Of a DNA stretch of 64,000 nucleotides, positions 1-30,990 are shown piece after piece (position 1 is the stretch's first letter; the number at the start of each line of letters is the position of its first letter). The DNA is from Anaerolineales bacterium (GTDB lineage Bacteria; Chloroflexota; Anaerolineae; Anaerolineales; Villigracilaceae): assembly GCA_015075275.1 (NCBI GenBank), contig JABTUU010000001.1, positions 806,001-870,000 of the forward strand. Direction: 5' to 3'. The translations under genes and the position numbers were made by a program. The notes below the pieces were generated by a model. The model did not search any database and was not told where the DNA came from. It saw only the letters and a program-made list of their open reading frames with translations.

Positions 1-257
1 AAGAAGTACTCAATCGCTTTGACGTCGTGGCGCGTCGTTTTTTCATATTCCTGGATATTGCGCGCGTCTTCGTCTGTGAAGGAGTCGAGAGAAATGTTGG
101 GGGGCGGGCAAATGCCCGCGTTGGAAAGAGCGGTTAGAAAGTCGAGTTCGAGGCGCGCGCGGGAGCGGAGGTAGGCAAATTCGGAGAAGAAATCTCGCAA
201 AGCGAAAATCTCTTGTTCGTAGCGTCCATCCAACGGAGAAAGAGCGTGAAGACTCAT
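1..257 (-). CDS. purB: Adenylosuccinate lyase, N-terminal part (cut by window edge)
   Basis: I translated this minus-strand frame by eye; it is open to the window edge, so only about 85 residues are seen. It reads LSPLDGRY near the start and later TTRHDVKAIEYF, which match the N-terminal helix region of bacterial adenylosuccinate lyase (E. coli has SPVDGRY and TTNHDVKAVEYF). The enzyme cleaves adenylosuccinate to AMP and SAICAR to AICAR. It is divergent from guaB, so the AMP and GMP branch enzymes share one intergenic region. Start chosen at 257 because the -10 box at 266-271 would put transcription start near 259; an ATG at 263 is in the same frame. Confidence 0.88.
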   Translation of the reverse strand, partial: MSLHALSPLDGRYEQEIFALRDFFSEFAYLRSRARLELDFLTALSNAGICPPPNISLDSFTDEDARNIQEYEKTTRHDVKAIEYF

Positions 258-17642: not shown

Positions 17643-19265
17643 TCAGCCCTGTCGTTTACGTTGCAGCCAGGTATAGAAGCCCATAACCGCAAAGGCGCCC
17701 GGGATGACGATCGCGGCAACGAACATCAGCAGTAGAATGCGCAATTGTGAGGCTGGACGGAACATGCGCGTTACCGGCTGTTTAGGCGTAATACCGACAA
17801 TGTTTTCCTGTTCTGCCGCCCAATCTACGGAATTGATGAATAGGTCGCTGTTGCCGTATCCCGAGTCGAAATTTTCGTCGTTGGCGAACTGCGACGTACC
17901 GAACGCCACAACCCGTCCGTGAGTGGTTGGATTTTCTATGGCAACGGCAAGGGTCAGCGGCCCGAGCATCTCAGATGTTTGGTCGTAACTTGCGGGACCG
18001 CCAGCCTGCGTTAGGCTGTTGAAGTCTCTTTCGCCCCATGAATTGTTAGCGGTGAGAACAAGCGGGCTAAGTTGGAGTCCTTGTTTTGCAAGGTCTACCG
18101 TAATGCTGCGCGTGAAAGGGAAGAACGTGGCGAGGTTGTTCATCCTGTTTGTGATAGGGTGCGTGGGGTCGTAAGACGCGGAAAAGCCGACGCTGGGATT
18201 TGGGCTGGCAAGGTCAATTGCGATATCGTTATTGAGCGTGACGCCCCAATCTTCCGCGAGCATATCGGCTAAGGGATCAGGCGCGTCGCCAACCTTGGTG
18301 AGAAAGGTCGGGTCTTCCATGACCAGCAGCGCGCCGCCGTTATTGAGATACGTTCGCAACAATCCTACTTCGTTGGCTGATAGCGGCGTTTGCGGTCCGG
18401 CGATAACGATCAGATTGGCGTCTTCGGGTGTTTTGTTTTCAGCGAGCAAGTTCAAGGTCTTGACAGTATAGTTTTTGCTTGTCAGCGTTTCACTTGCGCG
18501 AGTTAGAGCCGAGTTGCCGTCTTGATTTGTTTGCTGCGAATCAAGCTCGCCGTGGCCGGTGAGGAAATATACTGTGTGATCCTCCGGGCTGATGAGACGA
18601 ATCAGCGCTTTCAAGATTTCTTCTTCGGATGCAAATGAGACGATTTCGGATCGTTCGCCCATTTGCAAGAGAATCTTCCCATCACCGGTGATGTTGGCTT
18701 TGCGCGCGCGTTGAGGGTCGCGATTGGGATCGACGAATTCGTACTCAAATTTACCGTCGCTGGCGGCTTTGATGTTTCCAAGCAGTTGATCTGCCGAGGC
18801 GGGATTCATTTCTTGCGAGAAAAATGCGACGGCGGTTATTTTTTCGGGCAACGTTTTCAGGGCGGCGGTCAGCTCCGGCGACAATGTGTTTTCTTGATTC
18901 TCGGTTAGGTCGGCGATCTGGTAGGGATTGTCAAATACAAGCAGGTTGACGACGACTAACGTAAGGATGAACGCCAGCGTCGTGACTAACGCATTGCCGC
19001 CGTGTTTCGCTTGACGACCGGTGAGAAAGCGTTGAATTTTCGCCGGTTCGAACGCCGCGTACAGGGCGAGTCCGAGCGACATGACCCCAAGACTGATCCA
19101 TAATGCGTTGGTTAGTTTTTCCGGTGATTGAACCGTATATAGGTCAAGGGCGATCACGCCTTTGACGGCGCCGAGCAGCGCAGTAGAAATACACGCCAAC
19201 AGGGCTGCGATAAGCGCGATGATGGAGTATTTTCGATATGCGGGTTGAGCTTTCTTCTTTGCCAT
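17643..19265 (-). CDS. GldG-like auxiliary subunit of an ABC transporter
   Basis: About 540 residues: three N-terminal membrane helices (roughly 15-33, 48-66, 88-108), a large exported domain of the ABC-transporter auxiliary (GldG/IFT52-like) family with VYFLTGHGELD and YLNNGGALLVMEDPTF, and one C-terminal helix. In Bacteroidota GldG is part of an ABC transporter linked to gliding; in other phyla the role is unknown. The ATG at 19265 shares one base with the permease stop (TAATG) and follows GGAGATGG; a further ATG at 19274 would overlap the permease. Confidence 0.85.
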   Translation of the reverse strand: MAKKKAQPAYRKYSIIALIAALLACISTALLGAVKGVIALDLYTVQSPEKLTNALWISLGVMSLGLALYAAFEPAKIQRFLTGRQAKHGGNALVTTLAFILTLVVVNLLVFDNPYQIADLTENQENTLSPELTAALKTLPEKITAVAFFSQEMNPASADQLLGNIKAASDGKFEYEFVDPNRDPQRARKANITGDGKILLQMGERSEIVSFASEEEILKALIRLISPEDHTVYFLTGHGELDSQQTNQDGNSALTRASETLTSKNYTVKTLNLLAENKTPEDANLIVIAGPQTPLSANEVGLLRTYLNNGGALLVMEDPTFLTKVGDAPDPLADMLAEDWGVTLNNDIAIDLASPNPSVGFSASYDPTHPITNRMNNLATFFPFTRSITVDLAKQGLQLSPLVLTANNSWGERDFNSLTQAGGPASYDQTSEMLGPLTLAVAIENPTTHGRVVAFGTSQFANDENFDSGYGNSDLFINSVDWAAEQENIVGITPKQPVTRMFRPASQLRILLLMFVAAIVIPGAFAVMGFYTWLQRKRQG

Positions 19266-20008
19266 TATTTCCATCTCCGAATTTCGATCGCCAGCGTTCC
19301 TGTAAATAGTCCGATCGCGATGAGGCTGAGGAAGTACGTCAGATCGGTAAGGTAGAAATTCCCTTGACTGAGCGTATCTCCGAAATGTGCGTTAATTGTC
19401 ATATAGGTGAAGAAATCGCCGCCTACTGGGAACAGGCTGGCGGGAGCGCCGATCAGCCACCAGAGGAAGATGAACAACCCAAACGTGGCGATAAAAGCTG
19501 TTACCTGGTTGCTAAAGATCGCAGATATACCCACGCCTAATGCGATGAGTGCGCCGGCTAAGAGGATTAAGCCGATATAGGAAGAAGCGGCTAGCTTCCA
19601 ATCGGGGTGGGGCGTGACTTGCGGGCTGAGGATGATCAAGTAGAGGAGCGTGACAGAGATCAGCGTGAGGACGAACAGGAAGCTTCCCAGCCATTTTCCG
19701 GCGATCAGTTCGAAGTCGCGGATGGGGGCGGTGAGGAGTAGTTCGATGGCGCCGCTGCGCGTTTCGTCTGCGATCACCCTCATGGTCAGCGCGGGGATGG
19801 AGAGCAGCAGCAGGAAGCCGAAAAGGTTGTTAACCTCCGAAATCTCAGGCACGAATCCGCCAAACGACCCGCTTTGATTTGCGGCAAACAGCATTAAGGA
19901 GAAGTAGCCTCCGGTAAGAAGCAGTAGAGCCACAGCCACCACATAGGCGATTGGGCTGATGAAGTAATGGTTGTATTCGCGTTTTGCGATGATCCAAATG
20001 TTGCGCAT
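19265..20008 (-). CDS. ABC-2 type permease, GldF-like
   Basis: A 247-residue integral membrane protein with six predicted helices. The early segment NIWIIAKREYNHYFISPIAY and the stretch ETRSGAIELLLTAPI are characteristic of ABC-2 permeases next to Gld/Nos-type ATPases. It should form the membrane channel with the ATPase encoded 9 bases upstream (20018-20956) and the auxiliary subunit downstream. Transported substrate unknown. Confidence 0.9.
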   Translation of the reverse strand: MRNIWIIAKREYNHYFISPIAYVVAVALLLLTGGYFSLMLFAANQSGSFGGFVPEISEVNNLFGFLLLLSIPALTMRVIADETRSGAIELLLTAPIRDFELIAGKWLGSFLFVLTLISVTLLYLIILSPQVTPHPDWKLAASSYIGLILLAGALIALGVGISAIFSNQVTAFIATFGLFIFLWWLIGAPASLFPVGGDFFTYMTINAHFGDTLSQGNFYLTDLTYFLSLIAIGLFTGTLAIEIRRWK

Positions 20009-20017
20009 GAATTTGCC

Positions 20018-20956
20018 TCAGGATGATTTTTTGACGGACGACGCGCTTTCGCGGGTCAGTTCGAGGAAGATTTCTTCAAGACTCATGCTCGCCGTGCGCA
20101 TTTCGAGCAGATCGTAGCCGCCTTGTACGGCTGTTTTTGCGACGAGGGGACGCGCGTCTTGTCCGACGGAGAATTCGAATTCGATCGAATTGTCCTCTTT
20201 CTTTTCGACTCTTTTCACGCCCTTGATTTTCTTGATTTTTTCGGCGAGGTCGTCCGAGTCTCCGCGTACACGTAAGATGACTTGCTGCGCGCCGACAAGC
20301 TTCGATTGTAGATTCTCCGGCGTGTCTTCGGCGACAATTTTGCCTTTGTTGATGATCAGCACGCGATCACAAATTTGCTGCGCCTCCGAAAGGATGTGCG
20401 TGGAGAATAACACTGTGCGGTCTTTGCCGATCTCGCGAATCACTTCGCGGATCTCCGCCACTTGGTTTGGGTCGAGGCCGATGGTCGGTTCGTCGAGGAT
20501 GAGAACTTCAGGACGGTGTAGCAGCGCCTGCGCCAGCCCGATGCGTTGACGCATACCTTTTGAGAATGTGCCGATGTAACTGTGCGCGCGAGCGTCGAGG
20601 TTGACCGTGTCGAGCGTTTCGAGCGCGCGCTCTTCCACGTTTGGCAGGCGGCGCAATTGCCCCATGAATTTGAGATATTCAAAGGCGGTCATCTCGTTAT
20701 AGAGCGGAACTGTTTCAGGAAGATAGCCCACGCGTTTGCGGACTTCGAGCGATTCTTCCACGACGTTATGCCCCGCTACGATGATCGTTCCGTCGGTAGG
20801 CGGCATATACCCGGTCAGGATACGCATAGTAGTCGTTTTGCCTGCGCCATTCGGACCGAGGAAGCCGACGATTTCTCCCTGGTTGGCGTTGAAGCTGATG
20901 CTGTTGAGCGCGCGGCGCGCTCCGTAATCCTTGATAAGGCCGCTGACTTGGATCAT
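20018..20956 (-). CDS. ABC transporter ATP-binding subunit, GldA-like
   Basis: A 312-residue ATPase. Walker A is GPNGAGKTT, the signature is FSKGMRQRIGLAQAL, Walker B is VLILDEPTIGLD, and the switch His is in STHILSEA. A C-terminal regulatory extension of about 90 residues is as in the CcmA/GldA group. ATG 20956 follows AAGGAAACC, so I prefer it over a start at 20998 in the leader. First gene of a four-gene operon with permease, auxiliary subunit and DUF4340 protein. Confidence 0.93.
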   Translation of the reverse strand: MIQVSGLIKDYGARRALNSISFNANQGEIVGFLGPNGAGKTTTMRILTGYMPPTDGTIIVAGHNVVEESLEVRKRVGYLPETVPLYNEMTAFEYLKFMGQLRRLPNVEERALETLDTVNLDARAHSYIGTFSKGMRQRIGLAQALLHRPEVLILDEPTIGLDPNQVAEIREVIREIGKDRTVLFSTHILSEAQQICDRVLIINKGKIVAEDTPENLQSKLVGAQQVILRVRGDSDDLAEKIKKIKGVKRVEKKEDNSIEFEFSVGQDARPLVAKTAVQGGYDLLEMRTASMSLEEIFLELTRESASSVKKSS

Positions 20957-21000
20957 TAGGTTTCCTTGGAGAGAAGTAATATTCTTGCCGACAAACAAAA

Positions 21001-21214: not shown

Positions 21215-21243
21215 TTGAAAATAATAAGCTTAACTTGTATACT
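21215..21243 (+). promoter_or_regulatory. sigma-70-type promoter of the lipoprotein gene
   Basis: TTGAAA (21215-21220), 17-base spacer, TATACT (21238-21243). The expected start near 21250 leaves a 25-base leader containing AAAGGAGAA before the ATG at 21275. Confidence 0.75.
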
Positions 21244-21274
21244 CAGCGCATTCATAGTTCAAAAGGAGAATAGC

Positions 21275-21691
21275 ATGAGAAATAAAATATCTATAGCGTT
21301 CGCCGTGCTTGCATTGTTGCTTGTTTCATTCGCATGTTCGTTTGGCGGCGGCGAGCCGACTCTGAGCAATGCGCGCGCTTCGTTCGACTCGGATGGAAAA
21401 CAGATCAGTTCAACCTTCGGCGCGTTTGATACGGTGTACGTTGTTGCAGACTTGGAAAACGCTGTATCGGGAAACAAAGTCGTTGCCGACTGGTACGCTG
21501 AGAATGCGGATGGCGTTGACCCGAATTATAAATTCGATACGGTTGATTACACGATTACAGAGGATGCGTTTGATGGGATCGTGTACTTTTCGCGCTTGCC
21601 GCCAGATGGCGGCTGGCCCGTGGGGACCTATCGCGTCGAGTTGCTTTTCAATGGAGCGTTGAGCGCTACAGTAACGTTTACGATACAATAA
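21275..21691 (+). CDS. Putative secreted lipoprotein, unknown function
   Basis: A 138-residue protein with a Lys/Arg-containing start and a hydrophobic signal ending in LLLVSFAC; the Cys and the following GGGE suggest lipidation, although the -3 residue (Ser) is not ideal for a lipobox. The remainder is a small beta-rich domain (FDTVYVVADLENA, WPVGTYRVELLFNG) of the kind seen in extracytoplasmic ligand-binding or immunoglobulin-like folds. I do not recognise the family. It stands alone with its own promoter, a strong AAAGGAG site and a terminator. Confidence 0.8.
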   Translation: MRNKISIAFAVLALLLVSFACSFGGGEPTLSNARASFDSDGKQISSTFGAFDTVYVVADLENAVSGNKVVADWYAENADGVDPNYKFDTVDYTITEDAFDGIVYFSRLPPDGGWPVGTYRVELLFNGALSATVTFTIQ

Positions 21692-21747: not shown

Positions 21748-21776
21748 CGTAATGCGAAATAATATTTCGCATTACG
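21748..21776. repeat. Perfect 29-bp palindrome overlapping a stop codon
   Basis: CGTAATGCGAAAT (21748-21760), three-base centre, ATTTCGCATTACG (21764-21776). The right arm covers the stop codon of the minus-strand gene ending at 21772. It forms a second hairpin directly before the terminator in that gene's transcript. It may be an mRNA-stabilising or repeat element. Confidence 0.7.
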
Positions 21777-23334
21777 ATAACAACACCTGCCCGCAATACT
21801 CGCACTTATCCATGCCGAGTTCGAGAGTGCCGCCGCAGTTGGGACATTGGATCGTTTCCACTTTAATGGGGAAGCCCGCCGTTTTGAACGCGGTTTCGTT
21901 GTCCGCGAGATCGCCGCGCAGGCGTTTCAACCGCGCGAGATATGCGTCACCCGTCACCTCGCCTGATTTGCGCAGGCGTTCCACATCCGCAATGGATTCT
22001 TTCAACATGCGGCGTTCGGCTTCCAGCGATTCTTTGCTTTTATCTTGAAACGAAACTTTCAACTCAGGCTTCTTCGGAATGGATGCAAGGATCGCCGCGA
22101 TGATCAGGATGAAAGCCGAGACGATCACGCCAACGACCAGCGGCGTATATTGAAACCCAGGGATCGAATTGAAATTAACTTTGTTCACTTGCACTTCGCT
22201 GTAATCGGCGATCACTACATAACGCTCGCCGTTGAGTCTGCCAACGTCAATGCGCGTGATGCCCGTGCTGTGGTTCTCAAGATTATTTCTCGAACCATCG
22301 CCAGTGAACACAGCCACAGTCCCACTGTCGTCGCCGATCACCGCTTCTTCCGCGCCGTTGCCGTCCACGTCAATGCCCGAAATTTCAGTGACCTTGTCCG
22401 ACAGCGAACCCGTCCACATTTGATTCACCGCGCCGCCGTTGATCGAGAACGCCCACACGCCGCCATCTTTGCCGCCAACAACAAATTCGCGCGACGACGG
22501 CTCGCCGTTCAATTCCACTTCACGGATCTCGGATACCGCCTGACCCATTCCCTGCGAATAAATTTGACTTCCGTCCACTGCGGATAGCGCGACGAACGCG
22601 CCGAACTCGCCGCCTGTGAGGATCTCACTGTTGCCGTCGGAGTTGAAGTCGAACGCCCGCATCCTTCGCAGGGACTCCTGGTCCGTCTCCCAAACCTTTT
22701 GCCCATCTTCATCCAACACCACCACCGAGCCGTCGTGTGACGCGGCGGCGAGATGGACTTGTCCGTTGATGCGCGCATCGTCGAGTCCGCGAATCTCTTC
22801 GCCGCCGACGGAGTAATTCCATAGCGGTTGACCGCTCAAACTCAACGCTTGGAGTCCGCCGCCAGAATCGCCGAGGACAATTTGAGGTCCAGAGGGGAAG
22901 CGGAGGATCGCAACGCGCGCGGGCAGTCCCACAGTCAGACTCTGCGCGAGAGTCGAAACTTGCCCGTCAATGATCGTGTCAACCGAGTAACCCAAATCGC
23001 CGAGATAAAAGACGACCAGATCTTCGCGGTTGTCGCCGTTCACATCGCCGAGCGTGGTCTTCGGGGATTGATAGTCTTTCGTGAACAGAACATTTCCACC
23101 GCCATCGAAGATGGTCACATTCTGCGCGTTTTGGATGAAGAGTTCATCGTTATCGTCGCCCATCAAATTGATGACCTTCATGCTTTCGGCGGTGTCATAA
23201 CTCTGCGACCATACTTGATCCGCGCCGAATTTTTCAGCCTTTGCCAATCCGCTGAACGAGAACAGCGCGGCAACCGCCATCACGAGACAGACCAGAACGA
23301 ACGCCACCACGAACGGAATAACTTTGCGACTCAT
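21772..23334 (-). CDS. Membrane protein: exported FG-GAP-like beta-propeller, helix, coiled coil, C-terminal zinc ribbon
   Basis: A 520-residue protein of unknown function. An N-terminal membrane anchor (about 7-29) is followed by a propeller of about 350 residues with FG-GAP-type Asp loops (GDVNGDNREDLVVF, DFNSDGNSEILTGG, GIDVDGNGAEEAVIGD), likely calcium binding. A second helix (about 394-418) leads to a charged coiled coil and a CPNC...CEYC zinc ribbon (C497, C500, C511, C514). The coiled-coil and ribbon should be cytosolic, so the protein links the outside to the cytosol. Its stop is followed at once by its neighbour's territory: the upstream gene ends with TAA immediately before this ATG, so the two are translationally linked. 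Confidence 0.82.
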   Translation of the reverse strand: MSRKVIPFVVAFVLVCLVMAVAALFSFSGLAKAEKFGADQVWSQSYDTAESMKVINLMGDDNDELFIQNAQNVTIFDGGGNVLFTKDYQSPKTTLGDVNGDNREDLVVFYLGDLGYSVDTIIDGQVSTLAQSLTVGLPARVAILRFPSGPQIVLGDSGGGLQALSLSGQPLWNYSVGGEEIRGLDDARINGQVHLAAASHDGSVVVLDEDGQKVWETDQESLRRMRAFDFNSDGNSEILTGGEFGAFVALSAVDGSQIYSQGMGQAVSEIREVELNGEPSSREFVVGGKDGGVWAFSINGGAVNQMWTGSLSDKVTEISGIDVDGNGAEEAVIGDDSGTVAVFTGDGSRNNLENHSTGITRIDVGRLNGERYVVIADYSEVQVNKVNFNSIPGFQYTPLVVGVIVSAFILIIAAILASIPKKPELKVSFQDKSKESLEAERRMLKESIADVERLRKSGEVTGDAYLARLKRLRGDLADNETAFKTAGFPIKVETIQCPNCGGTLELGMDKCEYCGQVLLS

Positions 23335-24273
23335 TTACGCCGCCTTTCTTTGCAGAAGAGTGTATGCTGATTTGAGAATCTGCAAAATGTTTTCATGTTC
23401 CACTTCTTCAAACGGTGAATTTGCGACGAACGCGATCATGCCGCCTTCGGTGCTGAGCTGACTGATGGTGAATTTGCCGATGTTCAGCCCTTGTTTGAAT
23501 TCGTTGCTGGTCTTGGCAATTTTATACACTTCAGGGTTCGGCACAATGCGGACCTTCAGATCGTGCGCGGTGCCTTTGAATTTTTCGGGCTTGCTTTTCA
23601 TCTTGCCACTGATGCGACTGCGCTTCCAATAAGATTTGCGCTTCTTCGATTTTTGAATCCCAGACACGCGCAGGACGCTTCCATCATAGAGTTTGGCTTT
23701 GAGCGCAAGCCACTCATCGCGGAAGTATTCGGTCGTGCGCCCTTGCGCGTCGTTGGCTGAACGAGCCACTTTGGTGGGGAGCAGAAAACCTGTAAGGTCG
23801 AGATGGCCCAAGTAGGTCGAGTCAGGCTTGAGGTCGTCGCGAAGCGTGAAGAGGAGGTCGCGCGTCCCGTTGTAGCGAGTCGAGAAGTCGTATGAATCGC
23901 TTTTCCGTAAGCCGCGCGCCATCACAATCGCCGCGATCCACAACGCGACTCCGCCGCCTGTGAAGACGAACGAAAAATATCCGAGCAAAGACAGGATGAC
24001 GTCAATCAGCATCAAGGCGACGCCCGCGAGAAAGATCAGCAATGGAATCCAACGCCATTTGTCGCCCGCCTTTTCGGTTTTGTTCACGTCGAAGCGGAGT
24101 TTGTTCATCCCTTGAATAATAGACGCGGGCTTGTCGGCAAGCGAGATGTAAACAGGCAGGAGTTGTTTTTTGCCGAGCGACGTTGTTTCACTGACGCGCT
24201 TGCGCGCGGTGTTCAATAAATAGAAGAACACGATCACTGCAAATAGTAAGCCTCCGCACAAAACAAATTCCAT
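23335..24273 (-). CDS. Membrane protein of unknown function, coupled to the zinc-ribbon propeller protein
   Basis: A 312-residue protein with one helix at the N-terminus (about 3-20) and two in the middle (about 74-93 and 98-117), then a soluble domain of about 190 residues with GHLDLTG, a Lys/Arg-rich segment (KSKKRKSYWKRSR), and a C-terminal beta-rich stretch. No family recognised. The ATG at 24273 has GAGGAG just upstream; earlier in-frame starts fall in the divergent gene. The stop abuts the start of the next gene with no gap, so the products probably act together. Confidence 0.78.
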   Translation of the reverse strand: MEFVLCGGLLFAVIVFFYLLNTARKRVSETTSLGKKQLLPVYISLADKPASIIQGMNKLRFDVNKTEKAGDKWRWIPLLIFLAGVALMLIDVILSLLGYFSFVFTGGGVALWIAAIVMARGLRKSDSYDFSTRYNGTRDLLFTLRDDLKPDSTYLGHLDLTGFLLPTKVARSANDAQGRTTEYFRDEWLALKAKLYDGSVLRVSGIQKSKKRKSYWKRSRISGKMKSKPEKFKGTAHDLKVRIVPNPEVYKIAKTSNEFKQGLNIGKFTISQLSTEGGMIAFVANSPFEEVEHENILQILKSAYTLLQRKAA

Positions 24274-24285
24274 AGAATCTCCTCG

Positions 24286-24293
24286 TTTATAAT
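24286..24293. promoter_or_regulatory. Divergent -10 region between a membrane-protein gene and a GT4 gene
   Basis: TATAAT at 24288-24293 lies six bases before the ATG at 24300 with no Shine-Dalgarno, so the plus transcript would begin at or next to the start codon. On the minus strand the same bases read TATAAA (24291-24286), close to the GAGGAG site of the gene starting at 24273. Confidence 0.5.
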
Positions 24294-24299
24294 CTTGCC

Positions 24300-25475
24300 A
24301 TGCCTCGCGCACTCTATACCGCCTTCGATGTCGTGCCCAGCCCGAAGGGCGCGTCCACACATATTTTGCATAACATTCGCGGGTTGGTCAATGGGCAATT
24401 TGATGTCCATTTGGTTACGCCCAACGATGGCGTTCTTCCAACCGAAGACGCGATCGAAGGGGCGCGAGTCACGCGCATCTCGCAAGACCTCTCGCAAAAT
24501 TTTCTGGCGCGCGCCACACACTATGGCAAAGCGGTTCTCAATCATCTCGTGTTGCACCACGAGTACGACGTTGTTCATTATCGCAACATTTGGGATGGGC
24601 TCGCCATCGCGCAAAACAAAAAACGTTTCGGATATAAAACACTTTTTGAAGTCAACGGACTTCCCTCCATCGAACTCAAATATCACTATCCTGGACTCGA
24701 CGCGGATTTATTGACCAAGATCAAAGAACAGGAAATCGCGACTCTTCATCTTTCGGATGCGATCATCTGTCCCTCGAACGTGACGCGCGATTACATCGCC
24801 TCGCTCGGACTCCCCTTGAATCTGGTCACAGTCATCTCGAACGGAGTTAGCCCTTCGGACTTTTCCGCCTCGCCGTTGCCCAGCCGCGCGGATCGAATCC
24901 CAACGTTGCTATACATCGGCACCCTCGCCGATTGGCAGGGACTTGAAGTCGTTGTCAAAGCGTTGCCAAAGATTCTCGAACAGCGAGCAGTTCGACTCCA
25001 TATCGTCGGGCGCGGACGTTCGCGGCAGAGAAAATTTTTAGCAAAACAAATTCGTAAGTTAGGCGTTGAAGAGAGTGTGATCGTCCAGCCTGCAGTGCCG
25101 CATCACGAAATCCCCGCGTTGATCGCCAGCGCGGATATTTGCGTTGCCCCGCTAGGATTCAACGACCGCAACGTCACGCAAGGCGCATGTCCGATCAAGG
25201 TGTTGGAATACATGGCGGGCGGACGTCCGCTGTTGGCGTCGAATCTGCCCATCGTCCGCGAACTCGCCCGCGAAGATGTGGACGCGCTGTTATTTTCGCC
25301 CAATGACCCCGACGATTTTGCCAAACAAGCCTTGGCCCTGCTCGATGATTTTGAACTATCCAAGCGCTTAGCCGACTCCGCCTCCGAGCGCGCGTTGACG
25401 AAATTTACGTGGCACGAGTCGCAGAAGAAATTGTTGAAAGTTTATGGGAAATTGTTGAACGCCCCTAACTGTTGA
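24300..25475 (+). CDS. Glycosyltransferase family 4 (GT-B fold)
   Basis: A 391-residue cytosolic glycosyltransferase. The N-domain begins RALYTAFDVVPSPKGASTHI, with the acceptor-side glycine-rich loop; the C-domain has LLYIGTLADWQGLEVVVKAL and the sugar-nucleotide site IKVLEYMAGGRPLLAS with the second Glu of the EX7E motif in IVREL. Acceptor unknown. The start appears leaderless. Its last 34 bases overlap the end of the next gene on the opposite strand, also a GT4 enzyme but too different to be a recent copy. Confidence 0.88.
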   Translation: MPRALYTAFDVVPSPKGASTHILHNIRGLVNGQFDVHLVTPNDGVLPTEDAIEGARVTRISQDLSQNFLARATHYGKAVLNHLVLHHEYDVVHYRNIWDGLAIAQNKKRFGYKTLFEVNGLPSIELKYHYPGLDADLLTKIKEQEIATLHLSDAIICPSNVTRDYIASLGLPLNLVTVISNGVSPSDFSASPLPSRADRIPTLLYIGTLADWQGLEVVVKALPKILEQRAVRLHIVGRGRSRQRKFLAKQIRKLGVEESVIVQPAVPHHEIPALIASADICVAPLGFNDRNVTQGACPIKVLEYMAGGRPLLASNLPIVRELAREDVDALLFSPNDPDDFAKQALALLDDFELSKRLADSASERALTKFTWHESQKKLLKVYGKLLNAPNC

Positions 25476-26596
25476 TAAATTTTTAAATTTGCCTCCAACT
25501 CTTTTTGCGGCGTGAACCGCTCAATGACTAGCGCGCGTCCGTTAGCGCCTAGTTTTGCGCGCAACTCCGAATCCTCTAACAGGGCTAAAACTTTTGCCGC
25601 CAACATCTCGCTGTCGTTGACTGCGGCGAATACGCCGTTTACGCCGTCTTCGATAGTATCTTTGGAGCCGCCAACTGGCGTGACGACAACGGCGCGCTTA
25701 CATGCCAGCGCTTCGAGTAGAGCGTTCGGCATTCCGTCTCGCACGGAGGGGTGAACGAATACATCCATTAACGAGTAATAAGCCGGCAGATCGGCGAGAG
25801 GAATATAACCTGTTTCAACAATCGTAGATTGTGGGATTGATGCGCATAACGTATCGAAAAGCAGACGGTCTTCTCCGCGACGAACTTCTCCGACGATCAG
25901 TAACACAGATGGGCGTCGTTGATTGATTTGCGCGTAGCCATTTAGGAGCGTGCGCAGACCTTTCTTCTCGCGCAATTCCCCAACGAAACCGATAACGGGC
26001 AATATTGCCCCGCCGGGCTGCAAGCCCAACCGCTGCGCCAATAGTGTGTTTTTCTTGAGCGCTTGAAAGCGTTCAGCGTCCACGCCGTTAGGGAGCAGGA
26101 TGATTTCGCGCTCGTGGAAAGCGTGCGCTTTTCGAATCAGGTCTTGCGCATTGGCGCTGACTGCGCCGGCATGTTGTAAAGCAAATAAGATATGCGAAAA
26201 ACGGGCAGGATCAAAAGCGGCACGTTCAATATCGTTGCCGCGGATGGAGACCACGCTTGGGATGTTCAAGAATCGCCCAGCGAGCGTGGCAATGAATCCC
26301 GCTTGGGCGAGGAAGTAAGCGTGAAGAACGTCGAAGGGTTCGCACGCGTGTTCTTCGACGATGAGATCAAACCAGTCAACGAGCGTGTCGTCTGTGCGTT
26401 TGCGCGTGCCGAAGCGCGTGACGACGACTCCGTTTGAAGGGAGAGTGCGCTGTTCGGAGGGGGGCAGGCTGCCCGTCGGAGAGAAGACGTGGACTTCATA
26501 TCCAGCAGAAGATAACAAGCGCGCGAGTCGCTCGGACGAGATTGCCAGTCCGCCGATGTCGGGTGTATACTTTTCAGTGAGGAGAGCGATTTTCAT
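25442..26596 (-). CDS. Glycosyltransferase family 4 (GT-B fold)
   Basis: A 384-residue glycosyltransferase. The N-terminus KIALLTEKYTPDIGGLAIS is the classic GT4 entry, the middle has VIGFVGELREKKGLRTLL, and the donor site reads HPSVRDGMPNALLEALACKRAVV. It ends tail to tail with, and overlapping, another GT4 gene. Its ATG (26596-26594) overlaps the start codon of the divergent zinc-finger gene by two bases; a GTG at 26605 in frame is an alternative. Likely envelope polysaccharide or glycolipid synthesis. Confidence 0.88.
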   Translation of the reverse strand: MKIALLTEKYTPDIGGLAISSERLARLLSSAGYEVHVFSPTGSLPPSEQRTLPSNGVVVTRFGTRKRTDDTLVDWFDLIVEEHACEPFDVLHAYFLAQAGFIATLAGRFLNIPSVVSIRGNDIERAAFDPARFSHILFALQHAGAVSANAQDLIRKAHAFHEREIILLPNGVDAERFQALKKNTLLAQRLGLQPGGAILPVIGFVGELREKKGLRTLLNGYAQINQRRPSVLLIVGEVRRGEDRLLFDTLCASIPQSTIVETGYIPLADLPAYYSLMDVFVHPSVRDGMPNALLEALACKRAVVVTPVGGSKDTIEDGVNGVFAAVNDSEMLAAKVLALLEDSELRAKLGANGRALVIERFTPQKELEANLKIYQQLGAFNNFP

Positions 26597-26888
26597 GGCA
26601 GACACGTCCGCAGTGCAATGTGAAATGGTGATCGGTTATTTAGCGCCGCATCGTTGCGACAACCCGTCGTTAGGGAAGTGTATCAAATGCGGGCGCGGAT
26701 TTTGCGATGAGCATACGAACAATACGCGCGAGGGGCGAGTGTGTCTCGCGTGCCAGCAGGGACTCGATATGCCTGTTGCGTTGCCAATTGCCGCCGCAAC
26801 GTTTACCGCCGCCGATCTGCATACGTTCAATCAAGCGAGCGCGTGGGATGAGGATGACCGCGCGGATATGTTCTCTGATTTGAGTTAA
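26595..26888 (+). CDS. Small zinc-finger protein, unknown function
   Basis: A 97-residue protein. CDNPSLGKCIKCGRGFCDEH and CLACQQG give a run of Cys/His (C21-ish, CxxC, C, H, CxxC) like B-box or cross-brace zinc fingers. The second half is acidic and has no Cys. No membrane segment. GAGGAG at about 26580-26585 supports the ATG at 26595, which overlaps the ATG of the divergent glycosyltransferase. Two zinc-bearing membrane proteins are encoded nearby (21772, 29599); a link is only a guess. Confidence 0.72.
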   Translation: MADTSAVQCEMVIGYLAPHRCDNPSLGKCIKCGRGFCDEHTNNTREGRVCLACQQGLDMPVALPIAAATFTAADLHTFNQASAWDEDDRADMFSDLS

Positions 26889-26927
26889 AACTTTTACCAC
26901 GAACCCCGCAAGAGCATCGGGGCAGGT

Positions 26928-26988
26928 GACACTAAGGTCACGAAGGAATTAAAGCCATTACGCTTAAAAACTTTGTGTACTTCGTGTC
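26928..26988. repeat. Imperfect inverted repeat, intergenic
   Basis: GACACTAAGGTCACGAAG (26928-26945) and CTTTGTGTACTTCGTGTC (26971-26988) pair over 14 of 18 positions. The sequence style (GACACGAAG/CTTCGTGTC) is a dispersed intergenic repeat type. It lies between convergent genes and could act as a terminator hairpin. Confidence 0.6.
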
Positions 26989-27026
26989 ATTTCGACAAGT
27001 TCAATGCAAGCCTTTGTGTTTAAAGA

Positions 27027-28091
27027 TCAATACGGTCCGATCGTTTCCCAAATCTTTTTATTCTCAACAATAAAATCATCGCATCGTTGACACGGCTTGA
27101 GCGCGGGCGGGTGCATGTTCAAGCGGATCTGACGATACGCCGCGCCTTCCCATATTTCGGTGAACGATTGTTTTTTCACATCGCCCAATGGCTTGATCTG
27201 TTCGCGCGTCATACAACACACGTAGACGAGCCCGTTGAAGTCAATGAGACTGTGCGTCCACGGCGCGTAACAGGGGAATTTATTGTAGTAGCCGAACGCA
27301 TATCGTCCAGCACGTCCCAAGCGGACCTCGGAGTCGTCTCGCCCAAATGGGAACGCATCCTCGTCTGCGATGTTCACGCCCAATTCCTGCGCGCGCTGTT
27401 CGATGATCGGCGCGATCTCGGAGTTGTACAGCGCGATGTCTTTCTTCCGCATGGACAGATGCTCGCCGCAATGATCGTCTACGGGAATCAAGTTGATACC
27501 ATCCGCGCCGAGTTCGTGAGCGAGATCGGGGAGCGTGGCAAGCGTCTGATAATTGGATCGCCCAACGACCGTGTTGATGCGGACGGTCAACTTTCCTTTG
27601 TGTGAATATTTGTTGAATAACGAGACCGCCTTCGTCGTCTGCTTGAACGAACCTTCGACGCCGCGAATCTTTTCGTGCATCTTGCGGAGCGGCGAGTCAA
27701 TGGAAACGTTCACGCCGCGCAGACCCGCTTCGACGAGTCGCTTGGCTTTGACTTTGTCAATCAGCGTTCCGTTGGTCGTGAGCGTGACGCGCATTCCGAG
27801 TTGAGTCGCGTGTTCCACTAAATCGGGCAGTTTCGGACGAAGCATCGGCTCGCCGCCTGAGAAGTGAATTTTTTTGCATCCAAGTTCCGCGAGTTCGGAG
27901 ATGATCTCGCGGAAGCGATCCATCGAGATGGGCGGCTCGCGCGTCTCCCGCCAATGCTTGCACATCTCACACTTGAGGTTGCATCCGTAGTTGACTTTGA
28001 TCTTGACGTAAATAGGTTTGTACGCGCGCGCGTGAAGGACGGCTTGGCGCATCTCGTCTTTTTCGTCGGCGATTTGGGGGAGGTTGTACAT
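27027..28091 (-). CDS. Radical SAM/SPASM-type enzyme, unknown substrate
   Basis: A 354-residue radical SAM protein. The 4Fe-4S cluster motif is CNLKCEMC (about residues 37-44), followed by the SAM-binding FSGGEPMLRP and the TTNGTLID and NVSIDSP strands. The C-terminal region (CYAPW, YVCCMTRE, CQRCDDF) holds further Cys as in SPASM-type auxiliary cluster domains. SPASM enzymes modify peptides or small molecules; no precursor peptide gene was seen next to it. TACAAT lies about 14 bases before the start, suggesting a very short leader. Confidence 0.88.
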   Translation of the reverse strand: MYNLPQIADEKDEMRQAVLHARAYKPIYVKIKVNYGCNLKCEMCKHWRETREPPISMDRFREIISELAELGCKKIHFSGGEPMLRPKLPDLVEHATQLGMRVTLTTNGTLIDKVKAKRLVEAGLRGVNVSIDSPLRKMHEKIRGVEGSFKQTTKAVSLFNKYSHKGKLTVRINTVVGRSNYQTLATLPDLAHELGADGINLIPVDDHCGEHLSMRKKDIALYNSEIAPIIEQRAQELGVNIADEDAFPFGRDDSEVRLGRAGRYAFGYYNKFPCYAPWTHSLIDFNGLVYVCCMTREQIKPLGDVKKQSFTEIWEGAAYRQIRLNMHPPALKPCQRCDDFIVENKKIWETIGPY

Positions 28092-28139
28092 GGGTTACGG
28101 GTTCAATTGTAACACCCGCAACTGTGTGAAAGTGTTGAC

Positions 28140-28757
28140 TCACTTGGGCGGCAGTAAGAATCGTTTTGGAAAAACATATTCAGTCTTTTCATCCTTAAGC
28201 CAATCAATAAGTTTCAAAATACCGAAATAATTGAGGACAATGCCGAGCAGGATGCCCACTGCCAAATCTGTGGAGGTGGCCAAGTCGCTTTGAATGAGGA
28301 CATATCCGAAATAGGCTGAAATTGGCACAAAGAGAAAGATCGCAGTGAGCATGCCCGGGTTGTAGAGCGTTTTTCCTTTGACATTGAAAAGGAAAGTATG
28401 CGCGAAAAAATTACCCACCGAAACTAAAATCGTTGCAATCGCCAGCCAAAGAGCCTTTTCGCCAAACATGGCGGCAAGTAGATAGGCGACCCAGCCAATA
28501 AAAACATTGACGATCAGCGCGGTGTTGGTGTTGAGCGGATATCGATCTGGGTGTTTGCTCGAAAACATGACCGTGTTCATCATGCCCGGGAAACAGCCTG
28601 GGTAACGATATTCCTCAAATTGATGCAGGAATAGGGATATCAGACTTATCCACAGCACAAGTGAAAGCGGGCTTAACTTAGTCAGGAGAATCATTCCGCC
28701 TGTAAGAAAGGCAAGTACGAGACTCATGTCAAACCAATGCAGTCTGAAAAAATTCAT
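28140..28757 (-). CDS. HXXEE-domain membrane protein
   Basis: A 205-residue polytopic protein with about six helices. It has the family motif HQFEE (H45, E48, E49) in FLHQFEEYRYPGCFPG, and a later Asn/His motif (VGNFFAHTFLFNVKG). HXXEE proteins are uncharacterised; conserved His/Glu suggest metal binding. ATG 28757 follows AAGGAGAAAAT; the longer frame reaching 28862 lacks such a site. It is downstream of no obvious operon; the 840 bases before it are gene-poor. Confidence 0.8.
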   Translation of the reverse strand: MNFFRLHWFDMSLVLAFLTGGMILLTKLSPLSLVLWISLISLFLHQFEEYRYPGCFPGMMNTVMFSSKHPDRYPLNTNTALIVNVFIGWVAYLLAAMFGEKALWLAIATILVSVGNFFAHTFLFNVKGKTLYNPGMLTAIFLFVPISAYFGYVLIQSDLATSTDLAVGILLGIVLNYFGILKLIDWLKDEKTEYVFPKRFLLPPK

Positions 28758-29598
28758 ATTTTCTCCTTGTTGTTGATAAGCCATGCAACAGCTTTCATTA
28801 GCGGCTAGTTTGCTGTTCGCAGTTGCCTTGCTAATCGACGCAGGTCCATAGATGTTGAGCAAAGTCGCTCCGCATTAGTTGGCGCTTTCGCAAGGAGCGG
28901 TGTCATCCCTGTGGAGTTGGGCGGAGCGACTGCCGCTAGCGTTTATCCTGCTCGGGCTGGCAGGCATCTTCGACGAGCGTGTAGTGAAGCTTTTCGGTGT
29001 AAACGCGATGACTTCGTCGTAGTTGCGGACACGAGAGCGATGTAGGGGATGGATTAGTTCAGAATTTTTTTGTCCTAACAGGTTGATTTTTGGCAAAAAC
29101 TCATCATGATTTGCTTGATGACGAAGGGACCAAGCGCAATCGCAGGCGTGGGAGTTGCGGCCAGTATAGTTGTCATACAGCAGCTCCTTACTAATGCAGT
29201 GATTCTACGCGCCTTACCCGATAAATTATACAACTTTGAGGTGAAGCCCCATAAAGTAATTATAATATGTCGTAGCTTGAAGCGTCCAATCATCTGATCT
29301 AAGGCGCGGGCAACTCGTTGCGGAAAATGAAATCGTTGTGGAGGTGGACTTGGTCCTGAATAATCCTCGACGCAAGCAAGGTGAAAAATGAAAGCGCTGT
29401 TCGGGCTCTTTATCTTGTTGCATCAGAAGCGTTCGATTTCCAGCGAGGGTTGACAGATACCCTTAACTTGATCCTATCCGCTTTTATCGCTCTGGCGCAG
29501 TATCCTGTCTGAACTTAAGCCCAAACCTCAGATTTACGCCTTGAGTTTTTGGAAAAAAAGCCTACAATAGGCAATCAACTTTCTTGAAGAGAGACACT
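28758..29598. other. Gene-poor stretch with possible gene remnants
   Basis: About 840 bases without a convincing long gene. The plus strand has a 46-codon open stretch from 28879 reading SLWSWAERLPLAF and GLAGIFDERVVKLFG, which looks like membrane protein but begins after a stop and ends in one; on the minus strand a run reading RNYDEVI and, in another frame, LHYTLVEDACQPEQ could be a decayed gene tail. I could not assign either. A short ORF with a good ribosome site lies at 29075-29176. Confidence 0.4.
29075..29176 (-). CDS. Possible 33-residue small protein
   Basis: ATG at 29176 has AAGGAG at 29189-29184 with a 7-base spacer, an ideal ribosome site, and TATAAT at 29230-29225 upstream. The product MTTILAATPTPAIALGPF... 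is Pro/Ala rich with a hydrophobic stretch and two Cys near the end. No family recognised. It could be a real small protein, a leader peptide, or the start of a decayed gene. Confidence 0.35.
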   Translation of the reverse strand: MTTILAATPTPAIALGPFVIKQIMMSFCQKSTC

Positions 29599-30990
29599 AT
29601 GAATGATACTTTTAATTGCCCTGCTTGCGGCGCGCCCTTAGACTATAAAGGTTCAGACCCCATTATTCGCTGTCCGTATTGCAATAGCTCGGTGATTGTG
29701 CCAGAGAATCTGCGCGGACGCCCAAAGTTTTCGACGGAGCGCAGCGATTTTACGTTTGGCAAATTGGATATGAACGGCTTGATCAAACAGGCGCGGCGCA
29801 TCAATGAGGTGAAAGAACTGGCGAAAGCCGGCAAAATTCAACAAGCTGTTTCCCTCTACCGTGAGATCAGCGGTTCGGACGAAGCCGCCGCGCAAGAAGC
29901 GGTAGCGCGTTTGGCGGCTGGCCAACCGCTTGTTTTAAGCGGAACTTCAACGCTGGACGCGTCGTCCGCTGCGTGGACAAGCGACTCGATTGTTGAGATA
30001 ACGCGATCGCCTACCGCGGGCAAAACTGGCGCAGGCGTGTTAGGTTGGATTATCGCAATTATCGTTTTTGTCGCGATCGCCGGGGCTGTCATCCCCGCAT
30101 TAGCTGCCTTTGGAGGCGTAGCGATGATCATGAGGGAATTCAATATGCCCGTAAACGTTAACATTCCCGCGATTTCACTTCCTATGAGTTTTGCTTCGCG
30201 CGAACTTTCATTCGGAGGCGAGGGTAGCGGCGCAGGTTTATTCGACGATCCGCGTGCGATAGCGGTCAACCCGACGAATGGTGAAATTTATGCGGCTGGT
30301 TATTCCGATGGGCGCGTGCAGGTTTTTGGCGTGGATGGGGCGTTTATTACTCAGTGGACCATTTCTGCGGAGAAGGGCAATAAGCCGTATTTTGACGATA
30401 TGGCAGTTGCGCGCGATGGCGCAGTTTACATCCCCGTTTTTGGCGTATTGCAGAAATACGATAGCCGCGGCGCGCTGTTGAAAGTAATTAAACTTGATGG
30501 CGCCTATATTGAAAATCTTGATATCGGCGCCGATGGAACGCTGGTGGCGGTCGCTAACGGCGAAGACATTTTATGGTTAACGCCCGAAGGGGAACTGCTT
30601 CGGCGCGTGGATGCGGCTGTTTCTTCTATTTCTGACGATTCTGAACTAGACGCTAAAGTAGCCGTAGATGGCTTAGGCAAGGTCTATATGTTGGGCGCGT
30701 TCAATAACGCCGTTTTTGTGTACAGTCCTGAAGGCAGATATCTTAACCGCTTCGGCGGCGACGGCGATGAAAGCGGTCAATTTCGCGCGCCGATGGCGAT
30801 TGAAGTGGATGGGAAGGGTCGCGTTTTTGTCAGCGATATTAAAGGCGTGCAAGTCTTCGACGGCAACGGGCGCTACCTGAATGTGGTCAAAATATCAGGC
30901 GTAGCCTTTGGCATTGCGTTCGACGATCAGGGCAAGCTATATGCGACAACTAACAGCGGTAAGGTTGAGAAATACGACATTAAAGAGTAA
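29599..30990 (+). CDS. Membrane protein: N-terminal zinc ribbon, helix, NHL-type beta-propeller
   Basis: A 463-residue protein. The N-terminus is a zinc ribbon (C7, C10, C25, C28: CPACG...CPYCN), then a helical segment of about 90 residues, one membrane helix (about 150-175), and a propeller of about 270 residues with NHL-like repeats (DDPRAIAVNPTNGEIYAAG, FGVDGAFITQW, MAIEVDGKGRVFVSD). The ribbon should be cytosolic and the propeller exported. This is the same part list as the gene at 21772 in reverse order. The ATG 29599 follows GAAGAGAG; a TTG at 29584 precedes it and is less likely. A bidirectional terminator follows. Confidence 0.85.
   Translation: MNDTFNCPACGAPLDYKGSDPIIRCPYCNSSVIVPENLRGRPKFSTERSDFTFGKLDMNGLIKQARRINEVKELAKAGKIQQAVSLYREISGSDEAAAQEAVARLAAGQPLVLSGTSTLDASSAAWTSDSIVEITRSPTAGKTGAGVLGWIIAIIVFVAIAGAVIPALAAFGGVAMIMREFNMPVNVNIPAISLPMSFASRELSFGGEGSGAGLFDDPRAIAVNPTNGEIYAAGYSDGRVQVFGVDGAFITQWTISAEKGNKPYFDDMAVARDGAVYIPVFGVLQKYDSRGALLKVIKLDGAYIENLDIGADGTLVAVANGEDILWLTPEGELLRRVDAAVSSISDDSELDAKVAVDGLGKVYMLGAFNNAVFVYSPEGRYLNRFGGDGDESGQFRAPMAIEVDGKGRVFVSDIKGVQVFDGNGRYLNVVKISGVAFGIAFDDQGKLYATTNSGKVEKYDIKE

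What the first reader, a model, noticed from the sequence alone, without database searches (positions are those of the whole stretch)
21772..30990. Two membrane proteins made of the same parts in opposite order: zinc ribbon, helix, propeller
The gene at 21772-23334 has exported FG-GAP-like propeller, helix, coiled coil and C-terminal zinc ribbon; the gene at 29599-30990 has N-terminal zinc ribbon, helix and NHL-like propeller. Both should put a ribbon in the cytosol and a propeller outside. The first is coupled without gap to a second membrane protein (23335-24273) of unknown family. The pair may be parts of an undescribed envelope sensing or scaffolding system.
Basis: partly seen in the sequence, partly recalled or inferred. 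Interest (0 to 1): 0.65.

Follow-up and report, generated by a model that had tools for sequence, protein, structure and literature searches.

The report
Hidden six-gene module in Chloroflexota
One of the two propeller proteins, with its membrane partner, belongs to an undescribed set of six genes (two sugar-adding enzymes, a radical enzyme, a tiny zinc protein with a nearly unchanging tail, and two membrane proteins) that certain Chloroflexota bacteria keep or lose together, while the second propeller protein is unrelated.

Summary
The described proteins are real. P2 (23334-21772, minus strand) is predicted as an external eight-bladed PQQ/BamB-like propeller between two membrane helices, with a cytosolic helical hairpin and a C-terminal zinc ribbon. 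P3 (24273-23335, minus) is a membrane protein with no recognised family. The second propeller protein (29599-30990) is a different, NHL-type protein, and I found no link to P2.

P2-P3 is one end of a conserved six-gene set that continues through 24300-28091: GT1 and GT2 (GT4 glycosyltransferases), ZnB (97-residue zinc protein) and a radical-SAM/SPASM enzyme. In 150 genomes of the class, GT1, GT2, ZnB and rSAM occur in the same 10. P3 occurs in those plus one; P2 in nine of them plus one. In the 152 genomes of the family, P2 and ZnB co-occur in 49, with 8 and 4 discordant, even where they lie over 600 kb apart. ZnB ends in a nearly invariant F-[SA]-D-L-S-COOH tail.

Best reading: ZnB carries, or is, the substrate of the rSAM and glycosyltransferases, and P2-P3 is the membrane scaffold or sensor. 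Co-retention as a module is strongly supported; the chemistry is inferred. No named family or system matched in the searches made.

The parts
21772..23334 (-). P2: two-helix membrane protein, external 8-bladed PQQ/BamB-like propeller, cytosolic helical hairpin, C-terminal zinc ribbon
   Evidence: tail and ribbon among the most conserved columns
23335..24273 (-). P3: membrane protein, transmembrane hairpin 76-124 (plus an N-terminal helix 2-24 that alignment rows from more distant genomes lack) and a beta-rich domain predicted cytosolic; no known family
24300..25475 (+). GT1: GT4-type glycosyltransferase, divergent from P3
   Evidence: Pfam Glycos_transf_1 / Glyco_transf_4; divergent neighbour in 43 of 45 contigs with reach
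25442..26596 (-). GT2: second GT4-type glycosyltransferase (frame open to 26605)
   Evidence: same 10 of 150 genomes
26595..26888 (+). ZnB: 97-aa zinc-finger-like protein with acidic linker and F-[SA]-D-L-S-COOH tail
27027..28091 (-). rSAM: radical SAM enzyme with SPASM domain, CX3CX2C and SPASM cysteines conserved
17643..20998 (-). GldA/GldF/GldG-like ABC genes: frequent but optional neighbours, not counted in the module
   Evidence: GldA (>60% identity) downstream in 14 of 41 contigs with reach
21215..21691 (+). small lipoprotein-like gene, optional neighbour, not counted in the module
   Evidence: 17 of 49 contigs with reach; no Pfam family
29599..30990 (+). P0001: zinc ribbon - helix - NHL propeller; judged NOT part of the system

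Best explanation
A six-gene module restricted, as far as seen, to Chloroflexota. SHOWN by computation: the six genes are co-retained and often clustered, and P2 and P3 are predicted membrane proteins with a propeller outside (P2), and a helical hairpin and zinc ribbon (P2) and a beta-rich domain (P3) inside. INFERRED: P2 and P3 form a membrane complex. In the cytosol the SPASM radical-SAM enzyme recognises ZnB and modifies its invariant C-terminal tail, or a substrate bound to it, and the two GT4 enzymes add sugars to the same product. P2-P3 tethers this chemistry to the membrane and senses or presents the product outside through the propeller. The module works like a small-protein (RiPP-like) modification system with a dedicated membrane receptor/scaffold rather than like a full polysaccharide locus. 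Confidence by part: about 0.95 that the six genes are one functional unit, about 0.75 that P2 and P3 bind each other, about 0.4 that the ZnB tail is the rSAM's substrate rather than a docking motif.
For: Phyletic profile in 150 class genomes: GT1, ZnB, rSAM and GT2 each in the same 10 genomes; P3 in these 10 plus G012; P2 full length in 9 of the 10 plus G012. Same-genus G130 and same-family G089 and G111 (97-99% complete) lack all six. Within the family (152 genomes): P2 57, ZnB 53, both 49, P2 only 8, ZnB only 4, neither 91. A test on named genomes picked by P2 alone: ZnB found outside the fetched stretch in 40 of 49; rSAM lies beside ZnB in 30 of the 30 loci fetched and GT2 in 28 of 30 (the other two contigs end there). 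P2 and ZnB lie more than 600 kb apart on one contig in G027, G253 and G657 and are still both kept. Gene order rSAM-ZnB-GT2-GT1-P3-P2 with alternating strands in four families; an independent arrangement P3-P2-ZnB-rSAM on one strand in L148. ZnB tail: F at -5 and S at -1 in all 44 tails read; F-[SA]-D-L-S in 41 of 44, counting L152 in a shifted frame, after a linker of varying length and sequence. Catalytic motifs intact: CX3CX2C in all 7 rSAM rows that cover that stretch, SPASM cysteines in all 9 rows.
Against: No biochemistry was found for any of the six. RiPP-type companions (recognition-element protein, peptidase, exporter) were not seen in the clusters, nor were polysaccharide flippase or polymerase genes (inspection; not searched with models). 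The ZnB tail is near-invariant, whereas many RiPP cores vary (recalled). G012 has P2 and P3 but none of the other four at the cut-offs used, and G076 lacks P2 (both fragmented assemblies). 12 of 152 family genomes are discordant, among them G613 (97% complete) and G670 (99%). Pairwise identity correlations (r 0.76-0.94) mostly reflect shared ancestry; no unrelated gene was used as a control.
Confidence: 0.5

Rival explanations
1. Membrane glycolipid or exopolysaccharide decoration: GT1 and GT2 build a short lipid-linked glycan, the rSAM alters a sugar (as BlsE, DesII or BtrN act on sugars or aminocyclitols; recalled), ZnB is a regulatory zinc adaptor whose tail docks on a partner, and P2-P3 is a scaffold or surface sensor. 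No ribosomal substrate.
For: GT1's solved relatives include the phosphatidylinositol mannosyltransferase PimA. The rSAM's best solved relative is BlsE (cytosylglucuronate decarboxylase), with DesII and BtrN lower in the list. GT2 and GT1 resemble exopolysaccharide GT4 models, all far below cut-off.
Against: No nucleotide-sugar, flippase or polymerase genes seen in the cluster. It does not explain why the exact C-terminus of ZnB is held nearly invariant next to a SPASM enzyme.
Confidence: 0.33
2. The six genes are a co-inherited genomic island without a shared function.
For: Patchy presence within one genus (11 of the 18 listed g1 genomes have P2) and clustering fit island transfer.
Against: In G027, G253 and G657 the two halves are more than 600 kb apart and both are kept. 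Loss looks all-or-none in complete relatives. P3 finds no match in plasmid or phage records.
Confidence: 0.06
3. One reading: P2 and the NHL protein P0001 are two halves of one envelope sensing or scaffolding system.
For: Same topology and kind of parts; both lie within about 9 kb.
Against: P0001 relatives do not follow P2's distribution. In three genomes they sit by a secreted DUF5123-like protein, with a BTAD/NB-ARC regulator gene nearby, instead.
Confidence: 0.03

Closest known systems
Mycofactocin pathway (MftA-F)
   Same: SPASM rSAM acting at the C-terminus of a small ribosomal protein, plus a glycosyltransferase that glycosylates the product (PMC7491314, passages read). The rSAM aligns to the MftC model nearly full length, residues 25-340.
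   Different: The rSAM is far below the MftC cut-off (101.7 of 265 bits). No MftB, MftE or MftD genes seen in the cluster. ZnB is a 97-aa zinc protein ending FSDLS, not a 31-aa peptide ending VY. A membrane pair is present.
FxSxx-COOH peptide with rSAM/SPASM in VMAP ternary conflict systems
   Same: Small protein with a conserved C-terminal motif containing Phe, beside a SPASM rSAM (PMC7159879, passages read).
   Different: Motif is F-[SA]-D-L-S, not FxSxx. No vWA, MoxR, STAND or peptidase genes seen in the cluster.
BamB / YxaL-type PQQ-like propellers
   Same: Propeller fold of P2.
   Different: P2 is anchored by two helices and carries a cytosolic hairpin and zinc ribbon; it is not a lipoprotein of an outer-membrane machine.
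GT4 glycosyltransferases (PimA, EPS/stp families)
   Same: Both glycosyltransferase domains.
   Different: No NCBIfam equivalog cut-off reached; no accompanying export or polymerase genes seen.
Viperin (pVip) defence enzymes
   Same: rSAM core similarity, PADLOC 3.2e-27.
   Different: NCBIfam viperin model 82.7 of 180 bits. Here a SPASM domain follows the core.

Membership tests
Radical SAM / SPASM enzymes | CX3CX2C motif, Radical_SAM and SPASM domains above cut-off | tested here: met
   Pfam Radical_SAM 1.6e-26, SPASM 2e-15; motif conserved in the 7 rows covering it
GT4 glycosyltransferases | Glycos_transf_1 and Glyco_transf_4 domains above cut-off | tested here: met
   both GT1 and GT2; activity not testable here
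Mycofactocin biosynthesis | rSAM reaches the MftC equivalog cut-off | tested here: not met
   101.7 of 265 bits
Mycofactocin biosynthesis | precursor ending VY | tested here: not met
   ZnB ends F[SA]DLS
Mycofactocin biosynthesis | MftB, MftD and MftE genes in the genome | not tested
   none seen among the cluster neighbours read, but genomes were not searched for them
Viperin | NCBIfam viperin model cut-off | tested here: not met
   82.7 of 180 bits
FxSxx-COOH / VMAP system | C-terminal FxSxx motif | tested here: not met
   tail F[SA]DLS
BamB/PQQ_2-like propellers | PQQ_2 domain and eight-bladed fold | tested here: met
   PQQ_2 39.4 bits against 27.6; Foldseek to BamB and designed eight-blade propellers
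Gliding-motility Gld system | GldA/F/G-like genes reach the equivalog cut-offs | tested here: not met
   all below cut-off; downstream of the module in only 14 of 41 contigs
P3: MscS or membrane-fusion-protein fold | structural match over a whole domain | tested here: inconclusive
   best VIA Z 6.4, over the helical hairpin; no Foldseek E<=0.001

The most novel reading that the evidence does not exclude
The module makes a ribosomally derived, glycosylated small molecule: the rSAM converts the C-terminal F-x-D-L-S tail of ZnB (a precursor with a folded zinc 'leader'), the two GT4 enzymes glycosylate it, and the PQQ-type propeller of P2 binds the product outside. It would be a mycofactocin-like redox or signal molecule with its own membrane receptor, confined to Chloroflexota.
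Probability: 0.15. Interest if true: 0.88.

Novelty: new variant of a known kind. Interest (0 to 1): 0.62.

Why it matters
Chloroflexota of this kind are abundant in wastewater reactors and most are uncultured (abstracts listed); little is known of how they build or sense their surface. A gene set kept or lost as a unit, with a nearly invariant small-protein tail beside a SPASM radical enzyme and two glycosyltransferases, gives a short testable list: one small protein, one enzyme, one mass spectrum. If the tail is modified it defines a new precursor class with a zinc-finger leader; if not, it identifies a new membrane-tethered glycosylation unit. Either way it assigns three proteins without a family name (P2 as a whole, P3, ZnB) to one process.

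Tried and rejected
P0001 as partner of P2: rejected on distribution. GldAFG, the small lipoprotein and the HXXEE protein as core members: rejected (GldA 14 of 41, lipoprotein 17 of 49 contigs; HXXEE matched only the window's own locus among the 14 loci). A conserved secreted substrate gene downstream of P2: none common to the 15 divergent loci read. Viperin-type defence: rejected by model scores. Plasmid or phage origin of P3: no match. Fold of P3: no solved structure with Foldseek E<=0.001; VIA rows up to Z 6.4 cover mainly the helical hairpin, which may be only a common arrangement; the beta domain was not folded alone, so I do not call its fold new. Mirror-tree correlation was high but lacks a control and is not used as proof. 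Literature: searches for the combination gave no description of this cluster in the library held; some searches were background. Of the papers, passages of PMC7159879 and PMC7491314 were read; the rest were seen as listings with the start of abstracts only. Cyclophane chemistry of FxsB-type enzymes was recalled, and one search found no paper on it, so it is not used.

Rows dropped: L154 (ribbon-only match); contigs without reach from each denominator, of 61 loci with P2, 9 that already showed ZnB and 3 with partial P2 (L138, L139, L153) were left out. Alignments for structure prediction used 39 of 52 listed P3 loci (A3) and 36 of 56 listed P2 loci (A4), plus the window protein. The two genome collections overlap (for example L110=G061, L134=G148, L140=G021, L141=G129, L152=G030, L145=G012, L146=G048, judged by matching contig lengths and identities), so counts from them are not independent. 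Thresholds for GT1 (1e-80), rSAM (1e-60) and GT2 (1e-50) were set tight to exclude paralogs; P3 (1e-3) and ZnB (1e-5) were loose.
Full report
1. Observation. The three genes exist as described, with P2 and P3 on the minus strand. P2 (520 aa) has an N-terminal helix, a propeller scored as PQQ_2 with FG-GAP-like loops, a second helix, a coil and a C-terminal four-cysteine ribbon. In an alignment of ten relatives the ribbon cysteines are invariant and the cytosolic tail is among the best conserved parts. The AlphaFold2 model (37 sequences, pLDDT 87.9) shows helix 6-28, propeller 34-390, helix 394-418 and hairpin 434-485, matching designed eight-blade, YxaL and BamB propellers. P3 (312 aa; model pLDDT 90.7) has a helix 2-24, a transmembrane hairpin 76-124 and a beta-rich domain; no family and no solved fold was recognised. 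Positive charges (read from sequence) put both ends of P2 and the beta domain of P3 in the cytosol. P0001 is a zinc ribbon - helix - NHL protein. It resembles P2 only over 26 ribbon residues.

2. The two propeller proteins are not a pair. In the same 150 class genomes, P2 is full length in 10 (19 further genomes match only parts). P0001-like full-length proteins occur in 7 (G000, G111, G045, G118, G071 and, in two pieces of one frame, G121 and G013). They share one genome, the window's own.

3. The real context. Fetching the surroundings in other genomes showed that P2-P3 ends a conserved run: rSAM (27027-28091 -), ZnB (26595-26888 +), GT2 (26596-25442 -), GT1 (24300-25475 +), P3, P2, with the same order and alternating strands in G000, G148, G021, G129, G030 and G011, which span four families of the class (f1, f12, f22, f30). 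Presence was then tested gene by gene in the 150 genomes: GT1, ZnB, rSAM and GT2 fall in exactly the same 10 genomes; P3 in those plus G012; P2 in nine of those plus G012. Complete relatives in the same genus or family (G130, G089, G111) lack all six.

4. Named genomes. One scan of a collection of 84,980 species genomes with the P2 alignment gave 62 loci; 61 carry titles of Chloroflexota (taxon placement of the names recalled), and one, matching only in the ribbon, is an unnamed bacterium. The scan used exact ribbon peptides, so distant relatives could be missed. Among the 61 loci, P3 is directly upstream of P2 in 51 of 52 with reach and GT1 is divergent from the pair in 43 of 45; GT2, ZnB and rSAM are nearby in a minority (GT2 10 of 40, ZnB 5 of 33, rSAM 4 of 33). 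Of 49 such genomes tested, 40 have ZnB outside the stretch first fetched, and in the 30 of those loci fetched the rSAM adjoins it in 30 and GT2 in 28. So two sub-clusters, P2-P3-GT1 and GT2-ZnB-rSAM, lie together or apart. Within the whole family (152 genomes) P2 and ZnB agree in 140 and disagree in 12. In G027, G253 and G657 they lie more than 600 kb apart on one contig. In UBA2181 (L148) a different order, P3-P2-ZnB-rSAM on one strand, links the membrane pair directly to ZnB and the rSAM. In 400 genomes across the phylum 13 had P2 at E<=1e-30, all of the window's family in that sample.

5. ZnB. The small protein has an N-terminal set of cysteines and histidines (C..C..CxxC..CxxH..CxxC, read; only a sub-threshold DUF2180 match) and then an acidic linker of varying length and sequence ending in F-[SA]-D-L-S-COOH. 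In one search, 38 of 39 tails end so; the 39th (L152) shows it in a shifted frame; the window and G027 agree; G011 ends FTDLS; the two most divergent, G048 and G076, end FADAS and FVSLS. Phe at -5 and Ser at -1 hold in all 44. A variable linker followed by an invariant exact C-terminus is what one expects of an enzyme substrate tail or a docking peptide.

6. Enzymes. The rSAM has a SPASM domain and intact cysteines. It matches many rSAM models over the core but reaches no NCBIfam cut-off among those listed. Its best solved relatives are BlsE, which acts on a sugar-linked base, and PqqE, which acts on a peptide (substrates recalled), so substrate class cannot be read from homology. GT1 and GT2 are GT4 enzymes.

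7. Mechanism. Shown by computation: co-retention, synteny, membrane topology predictions, motif conservation. Inferred: P2-P3 complex; ZnB as substrate or carrier for the rSAM; glycosylation of the same product; propeller as external sensor or presenter. The closest working analogy is mycofactocin, where a SPASM enzyme modifies the C-terminal Val-Tyr of a small protein and MftF glycosylates the product (PMC7491314, passages), but the defining features tested are not met. The main rival is a lipid or surface glycan pathway with ZnB as adaptor.

8. Verdict. Observation confirmed, interpretation partly supported, the real system found next door. As a gene set it is undescribed in the libraries and papers searched. 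I file it as a new variant of the SPASM-rSAM/glycosyltransferase modification cluster because its chemistry is not known, not because a known member was matched.

Noticed in passing
window 26594-26597: The start codons of ZnB (plus) and of the ATG start of GT2 (minus) overlap in one CATG, so each gene's upstream signal would lie inside the other, unless GT2 starts at the GTG at 26605.
   Followed up: no
L148 5487-12979 (UBA2181): This cluster holds three different SPASM rSAM genes beside GT2, GT1, P3, P2 and ZnB, an expansion of the radical enzymes.
   Followed up: partly
L086, L089, L090: P0001-type zinc ribbon-NHL genes sit next to a secreted DUF5123-like protein, with a BTAD/NB-ARC/TPR regulator gene nearby, in three other genomes.
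   Followed up: no
L030 (G027:C1:3427761-3427942): A second, short copy of only the coil and zinc-ribbon tail of P2 (71-72% identity) lies elsewhere in G027, as if that tail were a separate module or a remnant.
   Followed up: no
L078 / L152 (SSC4): This MAG shows in-frame TGA codons in P3 and a frame shift in ZnB, probably sequencing errors since the tail survives in the other frame.
   Followed up: partly
window 17643-20998: A GldA/GldF/GldG-like ABC set follows the module in 14 of 41 contigs with reach; its role here is not clear.
   Followed up: partly
window 28863-29583: About 0.7 kb without an ORF of 90 aa or more separates the HXXEE-protein gene from P0001.
   Followed up: no
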